Of a DNA stretch of 8,687 bases, positions 1 through 8,687 are shown one piece after another. The stretch is from positions 1 to 8,687 of the forward strand of contig CAMLRI010000059.1 of assembly GCA_946482385.1 (NCBI GenBank), written 5' to 3'. This DNA comes from an uncultured Cellvibrio sp. GTDB lineage: Bacteria; Pseudomonadota; Gammaproteobacteria; Pseudomonadales; Cellvibrionaceae. The number at the start of each line of letters is the position of its first letter. Positions within the stretch are counted from its first letter, which is position 1. The notes under the pieces were generated by a model. The model had not been told where the DNA came from and did not search any database. It was given only the letters and a program-made list of their open reading frames with translations. Position numbers and translations under genes: made by a program.

Positions 1-1173
1 TACATTACTCTCTAGCTGAGTGGCGCCTGGTGCCGCCTCTACACCCGCTGTCGAGGTTTTAATTTCACCCAACAGGCTGGCGGCGTCCTCCAGCTGTTCC
101 AGCAGGCTACGGAAATATTCTTCACCAGCCATGGTGGCTTGTTGCAGGCTTTCCAGGGAGTTGAGCGCTTTTTCCGCCAGGCCCAGCAGCTGGGCTTCCT
201 GCTCCAAATTCAAATCCATACTCATGGCCATGGCCCGCAGCTCGGTGGAGAGTTCGGTCATAATTTCCTTAACGGAGTTGCGGTTATCGCGCGAGGCCAT
301 TTCCAGCAGCAACATGACTGTGCGGGAATTTTCCTGCTGGGCGCGCAACATGCTATTAACCTTTAAGGTTTTTGCCCGCGCTTCGGCGATAGACACTATG
401 TGAGCGAGCAGATCGCGCAGGCGGCCATAGCGCGCCTCGTCTTCAAAGGGCGCATCCAAGGCCAGCAGTTGCACCTGGGTAAAGTTAAACAACAAAAAAC
501 GGCCGTGGGAGACTATACGGCTGGCCGATTGCAATGCACCTTGCAACAAGCGCTTATAGGATTCGGGGGCATCGAGCGGGTAGTGGCTAATATCTTTATC
601 AAAGCGAAATTGCATCACCGCTTGCAAACCCAAATCGCGCAGGCAATTAAAGGTGAGCAGCGCCAACTCCGCCAGCTCCTTGGTGCTTTGCACCTTTTCG
701 GCATAGTGCGCCACCACACCCATTTCCGAGGCAGATGACATGGCGGTAAACGCCAGGCTGGAATAATTTTTTAACTCATCCTGCAGCGCATTCAGCGCTT
801 TTTTATCGGCGCAGGTTTTTAACAATACAGCGGCAAAATCTTCGCCGGCCATACCTATACTGGCATAGGCATCTATGCCCAATGCACTCAGTTGTCCGCG
901 CACTCGCGGTGAGGCCGCCTCCAGCAGCAAGACCACCTTGGGCATGGCCGTAGGCAACTGTGCCAAACGCCCGGTATCAAACAGGGTTTGGCCAGCCACC
1001 AATACCAGCAACTCACTCTGCGCCAAGAGTGCCAACCAATCTTCCGGTTGTGGGCAGCTGTCGTAACAGCCCACACCAAACGGCAGGAGTTCACCGCTGC
1101 GGTTTAAAATCAACTGTTCATCGGGCACCAGGTAAGCGCCCTCTTCCCCTGCCATCATCCACAATGCATTCAT
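1..1173 (-). CDS. Response-regulator-like protein with degenerate receiver domain (3' end missing)
   Basis: The frame is open from ATG at 1173 to the window edge, giving 391 codons without a stop; the C-terminus lies outside. The start is supported by AGGGGAAGG about five bases upstream. Residues about 50-121 resemble the second half of a CheY-like fold: a hydrophobic strand (LLVLVAG, 55-61), a second strand (KVVLLLE, 79-85), a helix, then ALGIDAY and a helix. No aspartate sits at the end of the first strand, where a phospho-acceptor is expected, so phosphorylation is unlikely. Residues about 124-275 carry a segment (SSLAFTAMSSASEMGVV near 138-154, RYGRLRDLLAHI near 249-259) that I recall as the output tail of some gammaproteobacterial response regulators of unknown function. 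Residues 275-372 are predicted helical or coiled coil. No signal peptide or membrane segment is seen, so it is probably cytoplasmic. It is divergent from the binding-protein gene. The family assignment is from memory; the function is unknown. Confidence 0.8.
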   Translation of the reverse strand, partial: MNALWMMAGEEGAYLVPDEQLILNRSGELLPFGVGCYDSCPQPEDWLALLAQSELLVLVAGQTLFDTGRLAQLPTAMPKVVLLLEAASPRVRGQLSALGIDAYASIGMAGEDFAAVLLKTCADKKALNALQDELKNYSSLAFTAMSSASEMGVVAHYAEKVQSTKELAELALLTFNCLRDLGLQAVMQFRFDKDISHYPLDAPESYKRLLQGALQSASRIVSHGRFLLFNFTQVQLLALDAPFEDEARYGRLRDLLAHIVSIAEARAKTLKVNSMLRAQQENSRTVMLLLEMASRDNRNSVKEIMTELSTELRAMAMSMDLNLEQEAQLLGLAEKALNSLESLQQATMAGEEYFRSLLEQLEDAASLLGEIKTSTAGVEAAPGATQLESNV

Positions 1174-1542: not shown

Positions 1543-2745
1543 ATGATCAAATTCTTTTATGCCCTTTGCGTGCTGGGTTTATTAGGCTTGCGCCCGGCGC
1601 TGGCCAATACCGAACTGCACATTATTTACACCTATGCCAAAGATAATTTCGGCCAGGTGCTGCAAGAATTTGGTCAACAGCAGGGCATTAAGATTAAAAG
1701 TGAATTCAAGGAACAGAACGATCTTAAATCCAGCATGATGGGGTTGATGGAAGCCAATACCGCACCCGATGCCATCATCATGCCCTCCGACCATGTGGGG
1801 CTGCACAGTTTTATCCGCTACAGCGAAATTGACCGCAAACTCTTTCCCGCCGCCATTCCCGAACGTATTTGGAACAGCGGTTTTAGCGATGGCAAGCTCT
1901 ACGGTGTGCCACTGATCCAAGGCAATCATCTGATGTTGTTTTACAACAAAGGCCTGATCAAAGAACCTGCGGCTAATTGGGAAGACATGCTTAAGCACAA
2001 AGCCGAATTAGAAGCAAAAGGCCTTGCCACCATCGCCTGGAGCTTTGACGAAGCCTATTGGTTTTTGCCCTTTTTGGCGGCCTACGGTGGTTGGCCGCTC
2101 AATAATGGCAAGGTAGAACTCAATACCCCCGCCATGGCAGCCGCATTGGATTTTTATAAAGGCCTGCGCTTGAAAAGCCTGCCCTACCCGGATTGCAGCT
2201 ACCAGTGTGCGGTGGATTTATTTAAAACCGGCAAGGTGGCCTACACCATCAATGGCGATTGGATCGGCAAAGAATTTCACCAGGCCCTGGGCGATAACCT
2301 GGGGGTAAGTGCCATACCTTCGGCCGAAGGTAAAACCATGATCCCCACCTTCTCCACCCATGTGATTGCCTTTCCCGGCGACTCCCTTAATGGCGCCAAG
2401 CGTGCCAGTCTTATCGCCCTGGCCAACTACCTGCAAAGCGCCAAGGTGCAGCGCCAAATATGGGATTTGAGCGGCGCTATCCCCGTGGAAGAATCCGCCT
2501 TTAACTATGCCCAAGGTAATGCCCAAGGCTACTTGAAAAAAACCATTGAATTGATGGCCAACACCAAGCCCATGCCCGCCGACAAAGAAATGACCTTTAT
2601 TTGGGATGCCATTGGCAAGGGCTATTGGCGCCATCGCGAGGGGGCTCTGGACGGTGCGGCCGCAGCACGCTATATGCAACAATTAGCCGAGCGACATATT
2701 CGCAATGCCCAACGTATGGTCAATTCCCAACCACCGACCCCCTAG
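1543..2745 (+). CDS. MalE-like periplasmic solute-binding protein
   Basis: This 400-residue protein has a signal peptide (positive start, hydrophobic core, cleavage expected after ALA at 19-21), so the mature form is periplasmic. Length and order of conserved segments follow the maltose-binding-protein family (extracellular solute-binding family 1). Examples are a PDAIIMPSD strand, YGVPLI, LFYNKGLI, TINGDW with W240, and MTFIWDAI with W354; the last two align with the MalE regions that supply aromatic sugar-stacking residues. C218 and C222 (CSYQC) could form a local disulfide. The ligand is unknown, but an oligosaccharide is reasonable. No permease or ATPase gene is adjacent; instead a diguanylate cyclase begins nine bases after the stop. 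That suggests a sensory rather than a transport role, as for NspS with MbaA, but this is inference. The ribosome site is weak (GGAT at 1530-1533), and the ATG overlaps the stop of an eight-codon upstream ORF. Confidence 0.88.
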   Translation: MIKFFYALCVLGLLGLRPALANTELHIIYTYAKDNFGQVLQEFGQQQGIKIKSEFKEQNDLKSSMMGLMEANTAPDAIIMPSDHVGLHSFIRYSEIDRKLFPAAIPERIWNSGFSDGKLYGVPLIQGNHLMLFYNKGLIKEPAANWEDMLKHKAELEAKGLATIAWSFDEAYWFLPFLAAYGGWPLNNGKVELNTPAMAAALDFYKGLRLKSLPYPDCSYQCAVDLFKTGKVAYTINGDWIGKEFHQALGDNLGVSAIPSAEGKTMIPTFSTHVIAFPGDSLNGAKRASLIALANYLQSAKVQRQIWDLSGAIPVEESAFNYAQGNAQGYLKKTIELMANTKPMPADKEMTFIWDAIGKGYWRHREGALDGAAAARYMQQLAERHIRNAQRMVNSQPPTP

Positions 2746-2748
2746 GAA
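2744..2748 (+). promoter_or_regulatory. Ribosome binding site overlapping the upstream stop codon
   Basis: AGGAA at 2744-2748 begins inside the TAG stop of the binding-protein gene (2743-2745) and lies six bases before the GTG at 2755. It selects GTG as the start of the cyclase gene and implies tight translational linkage of the two genes. Confidence 0.65.
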
Positions 2749-2754
2749 TAACCT

Positions 2755-4824
2755 GTGTCACTGCTTGCCAAACTCACCCTGCGCAGTTTTCGCCACACGG
2801 TACTCGCCCTGGTGTGGGCGGCGGTATCTGTGCCAGTGTTAATGCTGTGCATCTACCAACTCCGCAACGATTATGAGCAGGCACTGGTTCACAACGACCG
2901 CGAGCTGGCCTACGAAACAGAACGGGCGTCTTTTCTACTCACCCAGGCCATACGCCAATTGATGGGCGACCTGGATCGTATCGCCAGCGATGGCTCGGTG
3001 ATCCGCTCCCTCTCTATGCCCATACTTACGCCCATCTCGGTAAAAAAAATTGAGGAATACCTGGGCCACAACCCCGCTACCGACAGCGTAATGTTGATTG
3101 ACCAGGAATTGTTTCCGATTGAGGTGCTACCCACCTGGGCCTTGACTGATGACATTTCCGCTTATGAACCCTACATGGCCGAAGTAGTGTCATCGCCGGA
3201 TGCCATTAGCGACCCCCGCCCGCGCTTATTTATTCCACCCGCCAACACCAGCCATGGGCGCCAATTAATTTTTATCCGCCCTATTCTCAGCGCCAGCGAT
3301 TCGCTATCCAAACCCTTTCAGGTCAACGGGCTGCTGATGGTGAATATCAGTATTGAAAAACTGATGGTAGGGCTAAAGCAAGCCGGTGCTGATGAGCCGC
3401 AGCTGCTGCGCCTGCTCAGTAAAGATGAAACCCTCTACACCCAAGGCGATGCCAAACCCAATGAATTGCGCCTGCACCAAGTGGCCATAGCCGCCGAACT
3501 GGGCAAACAACAGCTAACCCTGGAGCTGGGGCGCACCGCCGATGGTGTGCTCAGCCAGGTGCTGCTGGGCTATCGCACCCAGGCCATAGCAGCGCTGCTA
3601 TTTCTGGGGCTGATGTTATTAGTCATTAAAAAACTGGCCGACAAACTGGCGCGCCCGCTGCAAATTTTAAGCGAGCTAACCCACAACATGAGCCACCAAA
3701 ACCTGGAAAACCGCAAGGCCACACCTATAGATACCAGCGCCGTGCAATACCGCGAGTTTTCCGAGGCCTTTGCCCTGCTCAGCAATATGGAAAGCACCAT
3801 ACAGGCGCAATTCCAACAACTGCACCAAGCCAATATCACCCTGGAAGACAAGGTTGCCGAGCGCACCGAGGCGCTGAAAAAAAATATTCTGCTGCTCGAC
3901 CAACAGCGCAACTCCCTGCAAAAGCTGGTGCAATTTTCCCTGGAGGTACAACAGCTAGCCTCGGTCGATGAAATAGGCCCCATGGGGCTCTCGCTGGCAG
4001 AATCCATTTGCCAACAACCTGTGGGCCTGTATTTGCTGCGCAGCGATTTTTTTGCCGGCTACGAACAATTGCACACATTGGATATTGCCATGCGCCAGCT
4101 GCTGCAACAGCAGCATCAACAGCTCAATGAATACGCTGCCCTGCTGCGCCTGGCCAAAAATACCCCCTGGATACACATAGTGCCCATAGGTACATCCACA
4201 CCCAGTTACCAGGGTTGTTTAATTACCCTGCGCAGCGAGCTGAGCGAACAATTCGGCGAAGCATTAATGGTGCTTAGCACCATGATGTCATCGGCACTCA
4301 AGCAACATAACCTCAATGCCAAGCTGCATCAGCTGGCGCATATAGATTCTGTCACCCGCCTGCCCAACCGCCACTACTTCACCTCGCGCTACAGCGAATT
4401 ACTCAACCGCTTTAATAGCAACAACCCCAGCACCCATTTTGGTGTTTTTGTGATCGATGTGAACGGCCTAAAATTTGTTAACGACCACCACGGCCACGAA
4501 TACGGTGATGAAATGCTCAAGCAAGTGGCCAATGCCATCAAGCAGGTGGCGCGCGCCAACGATACGGTTGCGCGGGTGGGCGGCGACGAGTTTTATATTT
4601 TGCTGGAACATGCCAACAGCGACACCTGCGAAAAATTTGCCGCGCGCCTGCGCGACATCAGCAATAACCTGAGCATGACCATTAACCATAAACCTCACCC
4701 CATTAGCTTCAGCCTGGGCTTTGCCAGCACCGATTTGGATTCGCTAAAAAACTTGCTCAGCCTGGCCGACGAACGCATGTATTTTGCCAAGAAAAAACAT
4801 TATCAAAACCAATCCGGGCCCTGA
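2755..4824 (+). CDS. Membrane diguanylate cyclase with periplasmic sensor, HAMP-like, GAF-like and GGDEF domains
   Basis: This 689-residue protein should make c-di-GMP from two GTP at the inner membrane. Helix 1 is at about 14-37. A periplasmic region of some 240 residues follows and looks Cache-like (RPRLFIPP, then RQLIFIRPIL and NGLLMVNISIEKL). Helix 2 is at about 277-291, followed by a HAMP-like segment (292-350, with ARPLQ) and a coiled coil (about 350-395). Residues about 390-530 look GAF-like but are weak. The C-terminal GGDEF domain starts after HIDSVTRLPNR. The catalytic motif GGDEF is intact at 609-613, and the inhibitory I-site RxxD is present as RAND at 600-603, so active, product-inhibited synthesis is expected. 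No EAL domain is present. The start is GTG, chosen from the AGGAA six bases upstream. The gene lies nine bases after the binding-protein gene, which makes that protein the obvious candidate partner for the periplasmic domain; this pairing is inferred. Confidence 0.9.
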   Translation: MSLLAKLTLRSFRHTVLALVWAAVSVPVLMLCIYQLRNDYEQALVHNDRELAYETERASFLLTQAIRQLMGDLDRIASDGSVIRSLSMPILTPISVKKIEEYLGHNPATDSVMLIDQELFPIEVLPTWALTDDISAYEPYMAEVVSSPDAISDPRPRLFIPPANTSHGRQLIFIRPILSASDSLSKPFQVNGLLMVNISIEKLMVGLKQAGADEPQLLRLLSKDETLYTQGDAKPNELRLHQVAIAAELGKQQLTLELGRTADGVLSQVLLGYRTQAIAALLFLGLMLLVIKKLADKLARPLQILSELTHNMSHQNLENRKATPIDTSAVQYREFSEAFALLSNMESTIQAQFQQLHQANITLEDKVAERTEALKKNILLLDQQRNSLQKLVQFSLEVQQLASVDEIGPMGLSLAESICQQPVGLYLLRSDFFAGYEQLHTLDIAMRQLLQQQHQQLNEYAALLRLAKNTPWIHIVPIGTSTPSYQGCLITLRSELSEQFGEALMVLSTMMSSALKQHNLNAKLHQLAHIDSVTRLPNRHYFTSRYSELLNRFNSNNPSTHFGVFVIDVNGLKFVNDHHGHEYGDEMLKQVANAIKQVARANDTVARVGGDEFYILLEHANSDTCEKFAARLRDISNNLSMTINHKPHPISFSLGFASTDLDSLKNLLSLADERMYFAKKKHYQNQSGP

Positions 4825-4825
4825 G

Positions 4826-4855
4826 TGTAAAACCCTCAAGCAATACCGCTATACT
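4826..4855 (+). promoter_or_regulatory. Possible weak internal promoter ahead of lapG-lapD
   Basis: TATACT at 4850-4855 is one base from the -10 consensus. A poor -35 candidate, TGTAAA at 4826-4831, lies 18 bases upstream. It sits just after the stop of the cyclase gene, in a 122-base gap before lapG that is otherwise pyrimidine-rich. It would let lapG-lapD be expressed separately from the sensor genes. The gap has no clear terminator, so read-through from upstream is also possible. Confidence 0.25.
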
Positions 4856-4934
4856 CTCGCCTCACCCACCCTTCCCTCATTAACTCCCACTGCCTCCATG
4901 CTGCCCACCCTGCCCGCCCATGTATTAGATGCAC

Positions 4935-4939
4935 AGGAA
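4935..4939 (+). promoter_or_regulatory. Ribosome binding site that fixes the lapG start
   Basis: AGGAA lies seven bases before the ATG at 4947. The alternative in-frame ATG at 4929 has no such site upstream and would place this motif inside the coding region. I therefore take 4947 as the start. Confidence 0.6.
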
Positions 4940-4946
4940 TCCCGCA

Positions 4947-5858
4947 ATGGGTAACCACTGCCTGGGCGCAGTTCAGCACAGCCGCTGGCGTTGGCCTGTG
5001 TGGTTGTTGGCCCTGCTTACCCTGGCGGCCAGTGCCGCACTCAATACCTCGCTGATGCGCGAACAAATGCAAACGCGCTACGGCGAAGACGGTGTGGCAC
5101 TACTCGATGCCTGGCAGCGTATGCTCAGCGATGCGCAACCACTGGCCAGCGCGCAGCAAGTGGTACAAGTCAATAATTTTTTTAACCAGCAGATTCGCTA
5201 CAGCGAAGACCTGCCGCTGTGGCAGCAATCGGATTACTGGGCCACCCCCTTGGAAACCCTGGGGCTGAGGGCGGGCGATTGCGAGGACTACAGCATCGCC
5301 AAATATTTATCGCTGTTGGCGCTGGGCATTCCACCATCGCAGCTGCGCCTGATTTATGTGCGCGCACAAATCGGCGGGCCACACAGCAAACTATTCCAGG
5401 CACATATGGTGCTGGGTTATTACCCGGCTACTGATGCCACTCCGTTGATTCTCGATAGCCTGGTACACAGCCTGCTGCCCGCCAACGAGCGGCCCGACCT
5501 GCGCCCGGTATTCAGCTTTAACAGCCAGGGCTTGTGGATCGGCGGCCAACTCACCCAAGCCGACCCCACAGCGCGCTTATCGCGCTGGCGGGATTTATTA
5601 ACCCGCGTCGAGGCCGAAGGTTTCCTGCTGGCAGCGCCAGCAACTGCCATAGCGGCCAATAGCTCCTTGCCAGCGGTTAACACAACACCTCTTACAACAC
5701 CGGCAACACCAGTAACACAAACAAACCAGTCGCTGCCAGTGGACGCCAGCGCATCATCATCTTCCACCAGCGCGGCAGCGCAACAAACCGCAGCCCCGTT
5801 AAACATTTCCGATACTGTAAATACTCCAGAAAAAGGCACTACCTATGTCGCTGATTAG
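4947..5858 (+). CDS. lapG: LapG-type periplasmic cysteine protease (transglutaminase-like)
   Basis: LapG cleaves the N-terminal region of LapA-type adhesins in the periplasm and so releases them from the cell surface; LapD sequesters it when c-di-GMP is high. Numbered from ATG 4947 (303 residues), the family's Cys-His-Asp triad is visible: C112 in AGDCEDYSIAKY, H153 in QAHMVLGYY and D170 in LILDSL. The acidic DCED segment matches the calcium-binding region known in LapG. The N-terminus has an arginine-rich start and one hydrophobic stretch (about 16-33) ending in ASAA, a signal peptide or anchor. The catalytic core ends near residue 230. The last 70 or so residues are a low-complexity Ala/Thr/Ser/Pro tail that I do not expect in a typical LapG, possibly a disordered linker. 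The gene overlaps lapD by 14 bases, so the two are translationally linked. An earlier ATG at 4929 would add six residues. Confidence 0.93.
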   Translation: MGNHCLGAVQHSRWRWPVWLLALLTLAASAALNTSLMREQMQTRYGEDGVALLDAWQRMLSDAQPLASAQQVVQVNNFFNQQIRYSEDLPLWQQSDYWATPLETLGLRAGDCEDYSIAKYLSLLALGIPPSQLRLIYVRAQIGGPHSKLFQAHMVLGYYPATDATPLILDSLVHSLLPANERPDLRPVFSFNSQGLWIGGQLTQADPTARLSRWRDLLTRVEAEGFLLAAPATAIAANSSLPAVNTTPLTTPATPVTQTNQSLPVDASASSSSTSAAAQQTAAPLNISDTVNTPEKGTTYVAD

Positions 5859-7749
5859 ACAATTGTGGATTGGCATTATTGTGCTGCTACTACTCGCCCT
5901 GGGCGGTAGCTTTGCCATTAGTCTGTTATCTGCCAAAAATTATTTTGAACAACAATTGCGCCTCAAAAATATCGACAACGCCACCACCCTGGCGCTGTCG
6001 ATGTCGCAACTGGCCAAAGACCCAGTCACCCTCGAATTAATGATCACCGCGCAATTCGATGCCGGCCACTACGAATACATTATGTTTAACGATCCGCACA
6101 ACAAACCTATAGTGGCCCGCAACTTTGCCGAGGCTACCGCCGCCAATGTGCCTGGCTGGTTTAACCAATGGGTAGCATTCAACCTTCCCCCCGGCATAGC
6201 CCAGGTGCAAGATGGCTGGCAGCAATACGGCACCCTGCTGGTAAAAAGCCACTCGGGTTATGCAGTAGAAGCCCTATGGCACAACGCCAAAAATTTACTG
6301 GAGTGGTTTTTATTTGCCTGCGTGGTGGCCGGCCTACTCGGCAGCCTGGTACTGAAATATTTGCTTAAACCCCTGGACGCTGTGATCGCCCAAGCGGAGG
6401 CTATAGGCGCGCAGCGTTTTATTGTGTCGCGCGAACCTAAAACCCTGGAATTTCGCCGCCTGGTTCACGCCATGAACCATCTTTCCGGCAGGGTGCAGAC
6501 CATGCTCAACAAAGAGGTGCAACAACTGCAACAGCTGCGCCGTGAAGCCCAGCAAGACAAGCTCACCGGGCTGAGCAACCGCGAACATTTTTTCAATATC
6601 CTCGACACCCGCTTGCAAGCCAACGATGGCCAAAGCCAAGGGGTATTGGCACTGGTGCGGGTGCGCGGTTTAGGTGAATTAAATAAACAACTCGGCCATC
6701 AACAAACCGATGCACTGCTGTGCCAACTGGCCAATGCCATCACCCATTTTGCCAGCCGCTATCCCGATGCGGCCGCAGGGCGTTTAAACGGCAGCGACCT
6801 GGCACTGTTAATGCCGGGCAATCTTTCGCCGGAATCTATTGCCGCTGAGTTATCCCACGGTTTAAACCTGGAGCTGGTTACCCTGGGGCAAGAGCAACTT
6901 GCCCTACCCCTGGCGGCCTGCCGCTACCAACAATCTGAGCTGCGCGCAGCTTTGATGCAGCGCTTGGACGGCGCCCTGGCCCAGGCGGAATTGAAAGGAA
7001 ATCGCGCGGTGGTGTTGGCCAACCGCGATGCCGGTGGCCAACGCCATTTGGAAGACTGGCGAAATTTATTGCAGCAGGCACTGAACCTGGGGCACCTAAG
7101 CCTGGAGCAATTTCCCGTGCGCGATCTGCGCGGCGAATTGATTCACCAAGAAGCCCCCTTGCGCCTGGCCCTGGAAGGCGAACTCAAACCCGCCAGTTTC
7201 TTTATGCCCTGGGCCAGCCGCCTGGGTTTATTGGCACAATTGGATTTAACCGTATTGCGCCTGGCGCTCACTTATTTACAGCAACCGCTCACCACATCAG
7301 GTTTGGCCATTAATATTTCCGCCGATGCGCTGTGCAATGCCCGCTTCCGCGAGCAGGCCATAGAAATGATTGAACAACACCCCGAGCAGGCACAGCGTTT
7401 ATGGCTGGACTTCCCCGAGGTTTGCGCCCTGCGCCATATGGATGAACTCCGGGCCTTTTGCACCCAGCTGCACCAGCTGGGCTGCCGCCCCGGCCTTAAA
7501 CATGTAGGGTTGGAATTCACCCAATTCCAACAATTACAGGATATGGGTTTAAGCCATTTAAAAATCGACAGCGCCCTGGTACAAACCCTGGAACAACAAC
7601 CGGGCAACCAGGCTTTTTTACAAAGCCTGTGCCACATTGGCCACTCGCTGGGCTTTACCATAGTCGCCATGGGCGTGAATCGACAAGAGCAGCAATCCCA
7701 ACTGGAAAAACTAGGCCTGGATGGTTTTACCGGGCCGGGAATTCACTAA
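5845..7749 (+). CDS. lapD: LapD-type c-di-GMP receptor with degenerate GGDEF and EAL domains
   Basis: LapD is an inner-membrane receptor that signals inside-out: c-di-GMP bound by its EAL domain makes the periplasmic domain capture LapG. This 634-residue protein has helix 1 at about 7-29, a periplasmic domain of about 120 residues, helix 2 at 154-170 and a HAMP segment from 171. A degenerate GGDEF domain (about 235-385) and a degenerate EAL domain (about 400-634) follow. The periplasmic domain contains GWQQYG with W125, matching the conserved tryptophan by which LapD is known to contact LapG, and SHSGYAVEALW ending at W145. GGDEF is replaced by NGSDL (315-319). EAL is EAP (436-438), and the catalytic glutamate late in EAL domains is methionine in VAMGV (M609), while KID (573-575) remains. 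This implies binding without synthesis or hydrolysis. AAAAGG lies eight bases before the ATG, inside lapG. Confidence 0.94.
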   Translation: MSLIRQLWIGIIVLLLLALGGSFAISLLSAKNYFEQQLRLKNIDNATTLALSMSQLAKDPVTLELMITAQFDAGHYEYIMFNDPHNKPIVARNFAEATAANVPGWFNQWVAFNLPPGIAQVQDGWQQYGTLLVKSHSGYAVEALWHNAKNLLEWFLFACVVAGLLGSLVLKYLLKPLDAVIAQAEAIGAQRFIVSREPKTLEFRRLVHAMNHLSGRVQTMLNKEVQQLQQLRREAQQDKLTGLSNREHFFNILDTRLQANDGQSQGVLALVRVRGLGELNKQLGHQQTDALLCQLANAITHFASRYPDAAAGRLNGSDLALLMPGNLSPESIAAELSHGLNLELVTLGQEQLALPLAACRYQQSELRAALMQRLDGALAQAELKGNRAVVLANRDAGGQRHLEDWRNLLQQALNLGHLSLEQFPVRDLRGELIHQEAPLRLALEGELKPASFFMPWASRLGLLAQLDLTVLRLALTYLQQPLTTSGLAINISADALCNARFREQAIEMIEQHPEQAQRLWLDFPEVCALRHMDELRAFCTQLHQLGCRPGLKHVGLEFTQFQQLQDMGLSHLKIDSALVQTLEQQPGNQAFLQSLCHIGHSLGFTIVAMGVNRQEQQSQLEKLGLDGFTGPGIH

Positions 7750-7821: not shown

Positions 7822-7843
7822 TGGCCGCCATGGATGGCGGCCA
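7822..7843. repeat. GC-rich inverted repeat after lapD
   Basis: TGGCCGCCAT at 7822-7831 and ATGGCGGCCA at 7834-7843 are perfect ten-base arms around two bases; in RNA the loop would open to at least four. The right arm overlaps the left arm of the adjacent terminator hairpin, so the two folds compete. A run of A follows on the plus strand, so by itself it is not a plus-strand terminator. Confidence 0.6.
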
Positions 7844-7880
7844 TAAAAAAACGCACTCGATGGTGCGTTTTTTTATGGCC
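7839..7880. terminator. Bidirectional intrinsic terminator between convergent genes
   Basis: Two perfect 18-base arms (7839-7856 and 7863-7880) flank the six-base loop TCGATG. Each strand has the core CGCAC/GTGCG stem flanked by seven A on one side and seven T on the other (7845-7851 and 7868-7874), so transcripts from either direction end in a stem followed by a U-run. It lies about 90 bases after the lapD stop and 20 bases beyond the stop of the minus-strand gene, where a shared terminator is expected. Confidence 0.9.
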
Positions 7881-7899: not shown

Positions 7900-8232
7900 T
7901 TATAAACCCAAACCCTCATTGCCATCATCCAGCAAATCAATACCCTGATGCTGGCCGCGCAATTCACGCCGGGTCATCAGTTTGGTTTGCGCAGCTTCGG
8001 GCAAATCAGTAAAGCGGATAACGCCTTTTTCAATCAGCAAGCCAATCACATCTTCCAACACCCGCGCCATCGCCTGGTCGGATTGCTCCAGGGACTGCAG
8101 CGCGCCTGTTTTTTGCAAGCCATAAAACACTTGCAGTTCAGCGGCACCATCTTCCAGCTGCTCGGTAAAACCAGCTGTCGCAACACGGCTTACCGCCTCA
8201 ATGGCTCCCTTGTTATCGCGCCTGATATACAT
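7900..8232 (-). CDS. Conserved small hypothetical protein, 110 residues
   Basis: A complete ORF starts at ATG 8232 with GAGG about five bases upstream. The protein is acidic and helical, without signal peptide, membrane segment or cysteine, so it is probably cytoplasmic. The central helix (ARVLEDVIGLLIEKGVIRFTDLP, about 55-77) followed by AAQTKLMTRRELR is the recognisable part. I recall similar short proteins in Pseudomonas and relatives carrying the label 'tryptophan synthase subunit beta-like'. The protein is far too short to be TrpB and shows none of its pyridoxal-phosphate features, so that name should not be read as a function. The gene follows the adhesin gene on the same strand at about 75 bases and ends at the shared terminator. 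Co-transcription with the adhesin is possible, but a hairpin lies between them. Function unknown. Confidence 0.85.
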   Translation of the reverse strand: MYIRRDNKGAIEAVSRVATAGFTEQLEDGAAELQVFYGLQKTGALQSLEQSDQAMARVLEDVIGLLIEKGVIRFTDLPEAAQTKLMTRRELRGQHQGIDLLDDGNEGLGL

Positions 8233-8307: not shown

Positions 8308-8687
8308 TTAATTGTTAGTCAACAAATTTCCTGCATTTTTCAGCTGGGTAATGATATCGGCATCGCTCTGGCCGTTTACCAGATTAATACCGCTCAACAC
8401 AATTTGCTGATCCGTTGCTGTAGCACTGTAACCACCGGCATAACCACCCGTAGAGCTGATATGCACAGTGGTGGTATTTACATTGCCCGTATTGCTGTAA
8501 GTAAAGTGCAAATAATCGGTAAGGTTTGTGTTGTTCTCGCCTTGCAGCAAATCGGTTAAATCCAACACATCGCTTTGTGTTTTACTAAAATCAACCAGCG
8601 TATCTACTGCCGGGCTACCTGCAGTTCCCGCATCAGCCAAATTCCACTTAAAGGTATCCGCCCCCAAGGCGCCGGTCAGGGTATCGT
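8308..8687 (-). CDS. C-terminal end of a large RTX-type adhesin with type I secretion signal (5' part missing)
   Basis: The frame is open from the right window edge to TAA at 8310-8308, giving 125 visible residues; the true start lies far outside. It begins in DTLTGALGADTF, the end of an RTX/calcium-binding type segment. It continues as a typical type I secretion C-terminal domain of the VC_A0849 subclass: AVDTLVDFSKTQSDVLDL, DLLQGENNTNL, LHFTYS, HISSTGGYAGGY, DQQIVLSGINL and a short polar tail. Such domains end giant repeat adhesins secreted through LapEBC-type exporters, which are not in view. Acid-rich composition without cysteine is usual for them. Because lapG and lapD lie directly opposite, this is the likely LapG substrate, a LapA-like adhesin. 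The N-terminal retention module and its cleavage site, which would prove this, are outside the window, so I give no symbol. Confidence 0.88.
   Translation of the reverse strand, partial: DTLTGALGADTFKWNLADAGTAGSPAVDTLVDFSKTQSDVLDLTDLLQGENNTNLTDYLHFTYSNTGNVNTTTVHISSTGGYAGGYSATATDQQIVLSGINLVNGQSDADIITQLKNAGNLLTNN

What the first reader, a model, noticed from the sequence alone, without database searches (positions are those of the whole stretch)
1543..7749. Candidate one-locus circuit: sugar-type binding protein, diguanylate cyclase, LapG and LapD
Seen: four same-strand genes in the order MalE-like periplasmic protein, membrane GGDEF enzyme with a large periplasmic region, lapG, lapD, facing an adhesin C-terminus. 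Known: LapD reads c-di-GMP and controls LapG, which cuts LapA-type adhesins; NspS (PotD-like) controls the c-di-GMP enzyme MbaA in Vibrio cholerae. Inferred: here a carbohydrate-type binding protein gates a dedicated cyclase whose product is read by the neighbouring LapD, so a sugar signal would decide attachment or release. A MalE-like input wired to Lap output is, to my knowledge, not a described system.
Basis: partly seen in the sequence, partly recalled or inferred. Interest (0 to 1): 0.72.

Follow-up and report, generated by a model that had tools for sequence, protein, structure and literature searches.

The report
Sugar-type sensor pair beside Lap genes
A maltose-binding-type protein that here looks like a sensor, not an uptake protein, is paired with a c-di-GMP-making enzyme and lies beside the genes that hold or release a surface adhesin, so a sugar signal may decide whether the cell stays attached.

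Summary
Cellvibrio japonicus, the closest named relative, has the same order. Two claims differ in strength. (1) SBP gates the cyclase: well supported. In 53 of 54 related loci a large gene follows the SBP directly; Pfam finds GGDEF in 24, HATPase_c in 28, SpoIIE in 2 of these. True pairing ranks first of 128 within-genome swaps. The cyclase's periplasmic domain is predicted as dCache, with LuxQ among the matches. Among the 20 permease proteins of C. japonicus none matches a sugar type best. (2) Dedicated wiring to Lap: partly supported. Linkage to lapGD is seen only in the window and C. japonicus; in genome G048 the pair lies 1.55 Mb from lapG. The two sites are reciprocally empty, so the pair looks like a cassette, in C. 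japonicus placed exactly between lapG and an alpha-amylase. That neighbour and the pocket suggest maltodextrin as ligand (inferred). New variant of a known kind (NspS-MbaA-like input, Lap output). Ligand, c-di-GMP and adhesin retention could not be tested.

The parts
1543..2745 (+). MalE-like periplasmic binding protein (400 aa, Sec-type signal by eye); proposed sensory subunit
2755..4824 (+). membrane diguanylate cyclase (689 aa); GGDEF 609-613, RxxD I-site 600-603
   Evidence: GGDEF E 1.3e-37; motif columns invariant or nearly so in the 15 aligned sequences
2866..3579 (+). periplasmic domain of the cyclase, predicted dCache (about residues 38-275)
4336..4800 (+). GGDEF catalytic domain
   Evidence: Pfam PF00990 residues 528-682
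4929..5858 (+). lapG, periplasmic cysteine protease (start codon may lie further downstream: relatives are shorter)
   Evidence: Peptidase_C93 50 bits, cut-off 27; best NCBIfam LapG, under its cut-off; 67% over 217 aa to C. japonicus LapG
5845..7749 (+). lapD, c-di-GMP receptor; GGDEF and EAL motifs degenerate by eye
   Evidence: LapD_MoxY_N, GGDEF, EAL; 66% over 633 aa to C. japonicus LapD
7839..7880 (+). terminator-like hairpin, 19 pairs then T run, after lapD
   Evidence: 17 terminator-like sites found in the stretch, 10.3 expected; this is the longest stem
7900..8232 (-). 110-aa protein of unknown function between adhesin and lapD
   Evidence: relative at the same place in L125, L127, L129; no Pfam/NCBIfam match
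8308..8685 (-). C-terminal end of a large type-I-secreted adhesin (runs off the window)
   Evidence: TIGR03661 62.7 bits; 73% over 124 aa to the 2386-aa C. japonicus adhesin, whose N-terminus holds LLDELEETAAG

Best explanation
The first two genes are a two-part receptor: a MalE-type periplasmic protein binds an oligosaccharide (most likely a maltodextrin) and, in the bound closed form, docks on the dCache domain of the neighbouring membrane diguanylate cyclase and changes its c-di-GMP output, as LuxP does with LuxQ and NspS with MbaA. It is not an uptake protein. In this lineage the pair has been placed directly upstream of lapG-lapD, so its c-di-GMP would be read by LapD, which holds back LapG and keeps the large adhesin on the surface; I expect sugar to favour attachment. 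Shown by sequence: gene order, domains, intact cyclase motifs, pairing, co-divergence, and no sugar-type permease recognised in C. japonicus. Inferred: ligand, docking, sign of the effect, and preferential signalling to this LapD.
For: GGDEF and I-site kept. 53 of 54 related loci have a large gene directly after the SBP; Pfam on those 53: GGDEF 24, HATPase_c 28, HisKA 24, SpoIIE 2, some members having more than one. SBP and receptor N-terminal distances correlate, r 0.95 over 58 pairs, and the true pairing ranks 1 of 128 within-genome swaps in 7 genomes with two pairs. On the SBP tree four labels (three outputs and ABC) need 4 changes, shuffled mean 29.1; 3 among sensory SBPs alone. dCache fold with LuxQ among Foldseek matches. 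20 C. japonicus permease proteins: no sugar-type best match. MBP pocket residues D65, E153, Y155, W230, W340 fall on D83, E172, Y174, W240, W354 (by eye, MBP numbers recalled), and the GNH..YN stretch matches maltotriose-bound 6ffl. In C. japonicus the pair lies between lapG and a GH13 alpha-amylase; G048 and G045 have that amylase directly beside lapG without the pair, and C. japonicus has the alternative site empty. C. japonicus adhesin has a TAAG site.
Against: Linkage to lapGD is not general: pair unlinked in G048, apparently decayed and unlinked in G045; no LapG hit in the fetched flanks of 80 loci; Marinimicrobium (G007) has a pair but no PF06035 match; 78 of 144 family genomes have PF06035 over the cut-off while 8 have an SBP relative at 1e-40 and 3 this cyclase at 1e-60 (one search scored at most 8 candidates in each genome listed). 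MBP residues W62, R66 and E111 are replaced (M, H, N). In the window the neighbour upstream is a different 391-aa protein, not the amylase. No complex could be modelled. The three pair-bearing Cellvibrio-type genomes show 40, 53 and 54 loose first-look candidates for cyclases (not verified), which could also feed LapD.
Confidence: 0.55

Rival explanations
1. The SBP-cyclase pair is a real sensory module, but its c-di-GMP acts on the cell-wide pool; position next to lapGD is a lineage accident without special wiring.
For: Pair is unlinked to lapGD in G048 and G045 and a pair exists without a PF06035 match in Marinimicrobium; linkage seen in two lineages only.
Against: In C. japonicus the pair sits exactly between lapG and the amylase that adjoins lapG in two relatives; in the window it is on the same strand, 104 nt before lapG, with the longest terminator-like hairpin only after lapD.
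Confidence: 0.35
2. The binding protein works in sugar uptake and the neighbouring cyclase is unrelated to it.
For: It is a MalE-family protein with a sugar-type pocket. The window's own genome is not held, so a permease there cannot be excluded.
Against: No sugar-type best match among 20 C. japonicus permease proteins, nearest more than 200 kb away; 53 of 54 related loci have a large gene directly after the SBP, with sensory outputs; co-divergence.
Confidence: 0.04
3. The dCache domain itself binds the signal (as in GcbC or SpdE) and the SBP only modulates or delivers a different ligand.
Against: The SBP is kept with the receptor in nearly all related loci examined and co-diverges with it.
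Confidence: 0.06

Closest known systems
NspS-MbaA (Vibrio cholerae, passage in PMC11575326; Sinorhizobium meliloti, PMC9993111, search listing with start of abstract)
   Same: A transporter-type periplasmic binding protein, separate gene, controls a membrane c-di-GMP enzyme
   Different: NspS is PotD-like (recalled) and senses norspermidine, MbaA is called dual-function; here MalE-like, GGDEF only, next to lapGD
LapD-LapG-LapA system (Pseudomonas; PMC3032553, passages seen; a C. japonicus LapD is listed in its alignment)
   Same: LapG protease, LapD with LapD_MoxY_N plus degenerate GGDEF-EAL, large adhesin
   Different: An SBP-receptor pair lies directly upstream; a 110-aa gene lies between lapD and the adhesin
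GcbC-LapD (P. fluorescens; PMC8846402, passage)
   Same: dCache cyclase feeding LapD in response to an outside ligand
   Different: GcbC likely binds citrate by its dCache domain; here a separate SBP is proposed as the sensor
LuxP-LuxQ (Vibrio harveyi; PDB 1zhh, 2hj9)
   Same: Periplasmic binding protein on a receptor whose periplasmic domain is among the fold matches
   Different: LuxP belongs to another binding-protein family and LuxQ has kinase output (recalled)

Membership tests
Lap system | LapG-type cysteine protease (Peptidase_C93) | tested here: met
   PF06035 50 bits, cut-off 27; NCBIfam LapG equivalog cut-off not reached, 222.5 of 320
Lap system | LapD with LapD_MoxY_N, GGDEF and EAL, both degenerate | tested here: met
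   Domains; motifs degenerate by eye; NCBIfam LapD equivalog cut-off not reached, 413.9 of 1020
Lap system | LapG-cleavable adhesin | tested here: inconclusive
   Only the adhesin C-terminus is in the window; the C. japonicus relative has TAAG at residue 113
NspS-MbaA type | Periplasmic SBP gene adjacent to a membrane c-di-GMP enzyme | tested here: met
   9-nt gap; pairing kept in relatives
NspS-MbaA type | PotD-like polyamine-binding protein | tested here: not met
   Best NCBIfam model MalE; best structures are maltotriose/maltotetraose binders
NspS-MbaA type | GGDEF-EAL dual enzyme | tested here: not met
   GGDEF only
NspS-MbaA type | Ligand changes enzyme output | not testable with these tools
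   needs assays
MalE of an ABC importer | MalE fold and sugar pocket | tested here: met
MalE of an ABC importer | Cognate sugar permease | tested here: inconclusive
   Window genome not held, no permease family match in the window proteins scanned. In C. japonicus not met: 20 PF00528 proteins scanned, 19 with non-sugar best match (several under the curated cut-offs), 1 (cut by the fetched stretch) without match at 1e-30
dCache receptor | dCache periplasmic fold | tested here: met
   By predicted model; Pfam dCache_1 does not match the window protein but matches 8 of 53 relatives
GcbC-LapD type | Cyclase physically contacts LapD | not testable with these tools
   no complex prediction available

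The most novel reading that the evidence does not exclude
A starch-oligosaccharide-gated attachment switch: a MalE-type sensor, split off from transport, controls a dCache cyclase whose product is delivered to the adjoining LapD, and it is one member of an unnamed, widespread, mostly Gammaproteobacterial receptor class in which MalE-like SBPs pair with membrane receptors of interchangeable output (cyclase, histidine kinase, SpoIIE-type phosphatase).
Probability: 0.42. Interest if true: 0.75.

Novelty: new variant of a known kind. Interest (0 to 1): 0.6.

Why it matters
Few outside signals that feed LapD are known (my recall; GcbC with citrate, PMC8846402, is one). A sugar-type binding protein feeding a cyclase at a lap locus, in a polysaccharide degrader, would link food detection to holding on to the food particle. 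C. japonicus can be mutated and has starch RNA-seq data (PMC10714805), so it can be tested at once. The wider class of MalE-like proteins next to receptors also suggests that genes named 'sugar ABC transporter substrate-binding protein' (examples) are in part misannotated sensors.

Tried and rejected
Uptake role: rejected on the C. japonicus evidence. Conserved four-gene linkage: rejected as a general rule. Matching contig lengths between the SBP, cyclase and LapG protein lists to find further linked contigs: only the C. japonicus contig is shared with certainty; a 6025-base length shared by three proteins may be chance, and only 120 of 3708 LapG hits were listed, so linked contigs may have been missed. 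Aeromonas SpdE as the Aeromonas member of the class: the L054 cyclase matched PDB chains only over its GGDEF part, not 7k5n. Periplasmic domain against PDB sequences: no match up to E 10. Crude GH13 motif search in ORFs of L001-L080: none found, no positive control run. First regex labels of output type were faulty and were replaced by profile labels. LuxQ is not among the 50 rows shown by VIA-align, only in Foldseek. A review of solute-binding proteins in signalling was not held.

Limits of the counts: the genome scan used one peptide pattern (91 relatives, best 80 kept), so relatives without it are missed, and no record titled Cellvibrio appeared there. The cut at L054 was mine, where hits change to Paenibacillus, Elusimicrobia and others; of those 26 loci 10 show a crude EAA permease motif. 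L011 is the one of 54 without a partner. One search counts families, not members; by my profiles 24 of the 53 partners are GGDEF and 25 kinase, L026 and L030 were set to phosphatase by hand, L025 and L028 stayed unlabelled and were set to kinase by hand for the tree. The swap test is won narrowly over the Catenovulum swap (0.94987 to 0.94983); the two Neiella and two Aliagarivorans genomes are not independent. The tree is a quick one with long branches, and near-copies make labels cluster.

Full report
WHAT IS THERE. Searches confirm the four genes and the facing adhesin end. The SBP and the cyclase are 9 nt apart, the lapG frame starts 104 nt after the cyclase, lapG and lapD overlap. The longest terminator-like hairpin on the plus strand lies after lapD (7839-7880), and none is listed on that strand between cyclase and lapG; promoter hits (4) do not exceed shuffles (6.5). 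A single transcript is plausible, not shown. A conserved 110-aa gene separates lapD from the adhesin. The cyclase keeps GGDEF (609-613) and the RxxD I-site (600-603) in line with relatives, so it should be an active, feedback-inhibited enzyme. LapD's motifs are degenerate by eye, as expected of a receptor.

WHERE IT COMES FROM. No genome is held for the window. The nearest named proteins are from Cellvibrio japonicus: SBP 76%, cyclase 69% (residues 1-500), LapG 67%.

THE PAIR. The SBP alignment A1 was scanned over genome contigs with one peptide pattern (91 relatives, best 80 kept as loci). In L001-L054, mostly Gammaproteobacteria (Aeromonas, Photobacterium, Agarivorans, Neiella, Psychromonas, Pseudoalteromonas and others), 53 of 54 SBP genes are directly followed, often with a 4-nt overlap, by a gene of 442 to 1103 codons. 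Pfam on those 53: HATPase_c 28, GGDEF 24, HisKA 24, receiver 15, dCache_1 8, SpoIIE 2 (counts by family). With the window, C. japonicus and three more pairs (58 in all), SBP distance and receptor N-terminal distance correlate at r 0.95, and at 0.65 among distant pairs. Because species history alone could do this, I swapped partners within the seven genomes that hold two pairs: the true pairing is first of 128, narrowly over one swap. On a quick tree of 68 SBPs the four labels need 4 changes against a shuffled mean of 29.1, and 3 among sensory SBPs. SBPs thus tend to stay with one receptor type.

NOT UPTAKE. C. japonicus has 21 PF00528 matches in 20 proteins, the nearest more than 200 kb from the SBP. 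The 20 were scanned with NCBIfam: in 19 the best matches are sulfate, sulfonate, nitrate, taurine, molybdate, peptide, phosphate, phosphonate or related non-sugar permeases, several under the curated cut-offs; one, cut by the fetched stretch, had no match at 1e-30. None is of the maltose type by best match. In G048 and G045 the nearest matches are about 26 kb away, not typed.

THE LAP LINK. In C. japonicus (L125) the order is adhesin, 110-aa-type gene, lapD, lapG, cyclase, SBP, then a GH13 alpha-amylase with a signal peptide by eye. In G048 and G045 the adhesin-lapD-lapG block is directly followed by the same amylase (79% over 636-637 aa), with no pair. There the pair (apparently decayed in G045) lies between a 200-aa gene and an oxaloacetate-decarboxylase-type gene; in C. 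japonicus those two genes are about 0.5-0.6 kb apart, with no ORF of 150 aa between. So the pair behaves as a two-gene cassette with reciprocal empty sites. The G048 cyclase is the shorter form (615-aa frame), so the two sites may hold paralogues rather than one moved copy. In 144 genomes of the family, 78 have PF06035 over the cut-off, 8 an SBP relative, 3 this cyclase. In the 30 lapG places given as loci, with flanks of about 1.5 kb, no SBP or cyclase of this type was found. No LapG was found among ORFs in the fetched flanks of the 80 loci, and of 28 genomes searched for PF06035 23 have it; Marinimicrobium has a pair and no match. The Lap link is therefore local to one lineage as far as seen.

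MECHANISM. Most likely: maltodextrin released by secreted amylases reaches the periplasm, the SBP closes on it, docks on the dCache and alters c-di-GMP synthesis; LapD next door reads the change and sets LapG and adhesin. GcbC-LapD (citrate; PMC8846402, passages) shows that a dCache cyclase can feed LapD by contact. In C. japonicus a secretion mutant cannot grow on starch, and the authors hypothesise that its starch enzymes are regulated mainly by substrate detection (PMC10714805, parts 1 and 2 of 3 read). The C. japonicus adhesin carries LLDELEETAAG, a LapG-type site (motif recalled). Ligand, docking and sign are inferences.

NOVELTY. The 2022 review (PMC8846402, passages seen) states that of the binding-protein clan only SBP_bac_3 has been studied in c-di-GMP networks; PMC9602780 (passages) lists cyclases among receptors that SBPs can activate. 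Ten searches of the paper library showed no MalE-type SBP paired with a cyclase or Lap system in the listings seen. Most subscription papers are not held, so this is no proof of absence. I rate it a new variant of a known kind.

Noticed in passing
L001-L054: A widespread, seemingly unnamed family of MalE-like SBPs paired with receptors of different output (cyclase, histidine kinase, SpoIIE-type phosphatase); some relatives are named sugar ABC substrate-binding proteins.
   Followed up: yes
L133:8659-10971 and L027:8736-11137: Doubled sensors: a fused double SBP (770 aa) before the cyclase in Marinimicrobium and two tandem SBP genes before a kinase in Colwellia; some protein lists also show two or three SBPs with one contig length.
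   Followed up: partly
window 7900-8232 (-): 110-aa protein between adhesin and lapD in all four Cellvibrio-type loci looked at, without Pfam or NCBIfam match.
   Followed up: partly
L128:8646-10559: SBP truncated and cyclase in two pieces in G045 while its lap block is intact: the pair may be dispensable there (or the assembly is wrong).
   Followed up: partly
window 1-1173 (-): 391-aa protein running off the window, divergent from the SBP, without Pfam or NCBIfam match; it stands where C. japonicus has the alpha-amylase.
   Followed up: no
P0140, P0149, P0151, P0154: A shorter form of the cyclase (609-613 aa) lacks about 75 residues after the second membrane helix.
   Followed up: no
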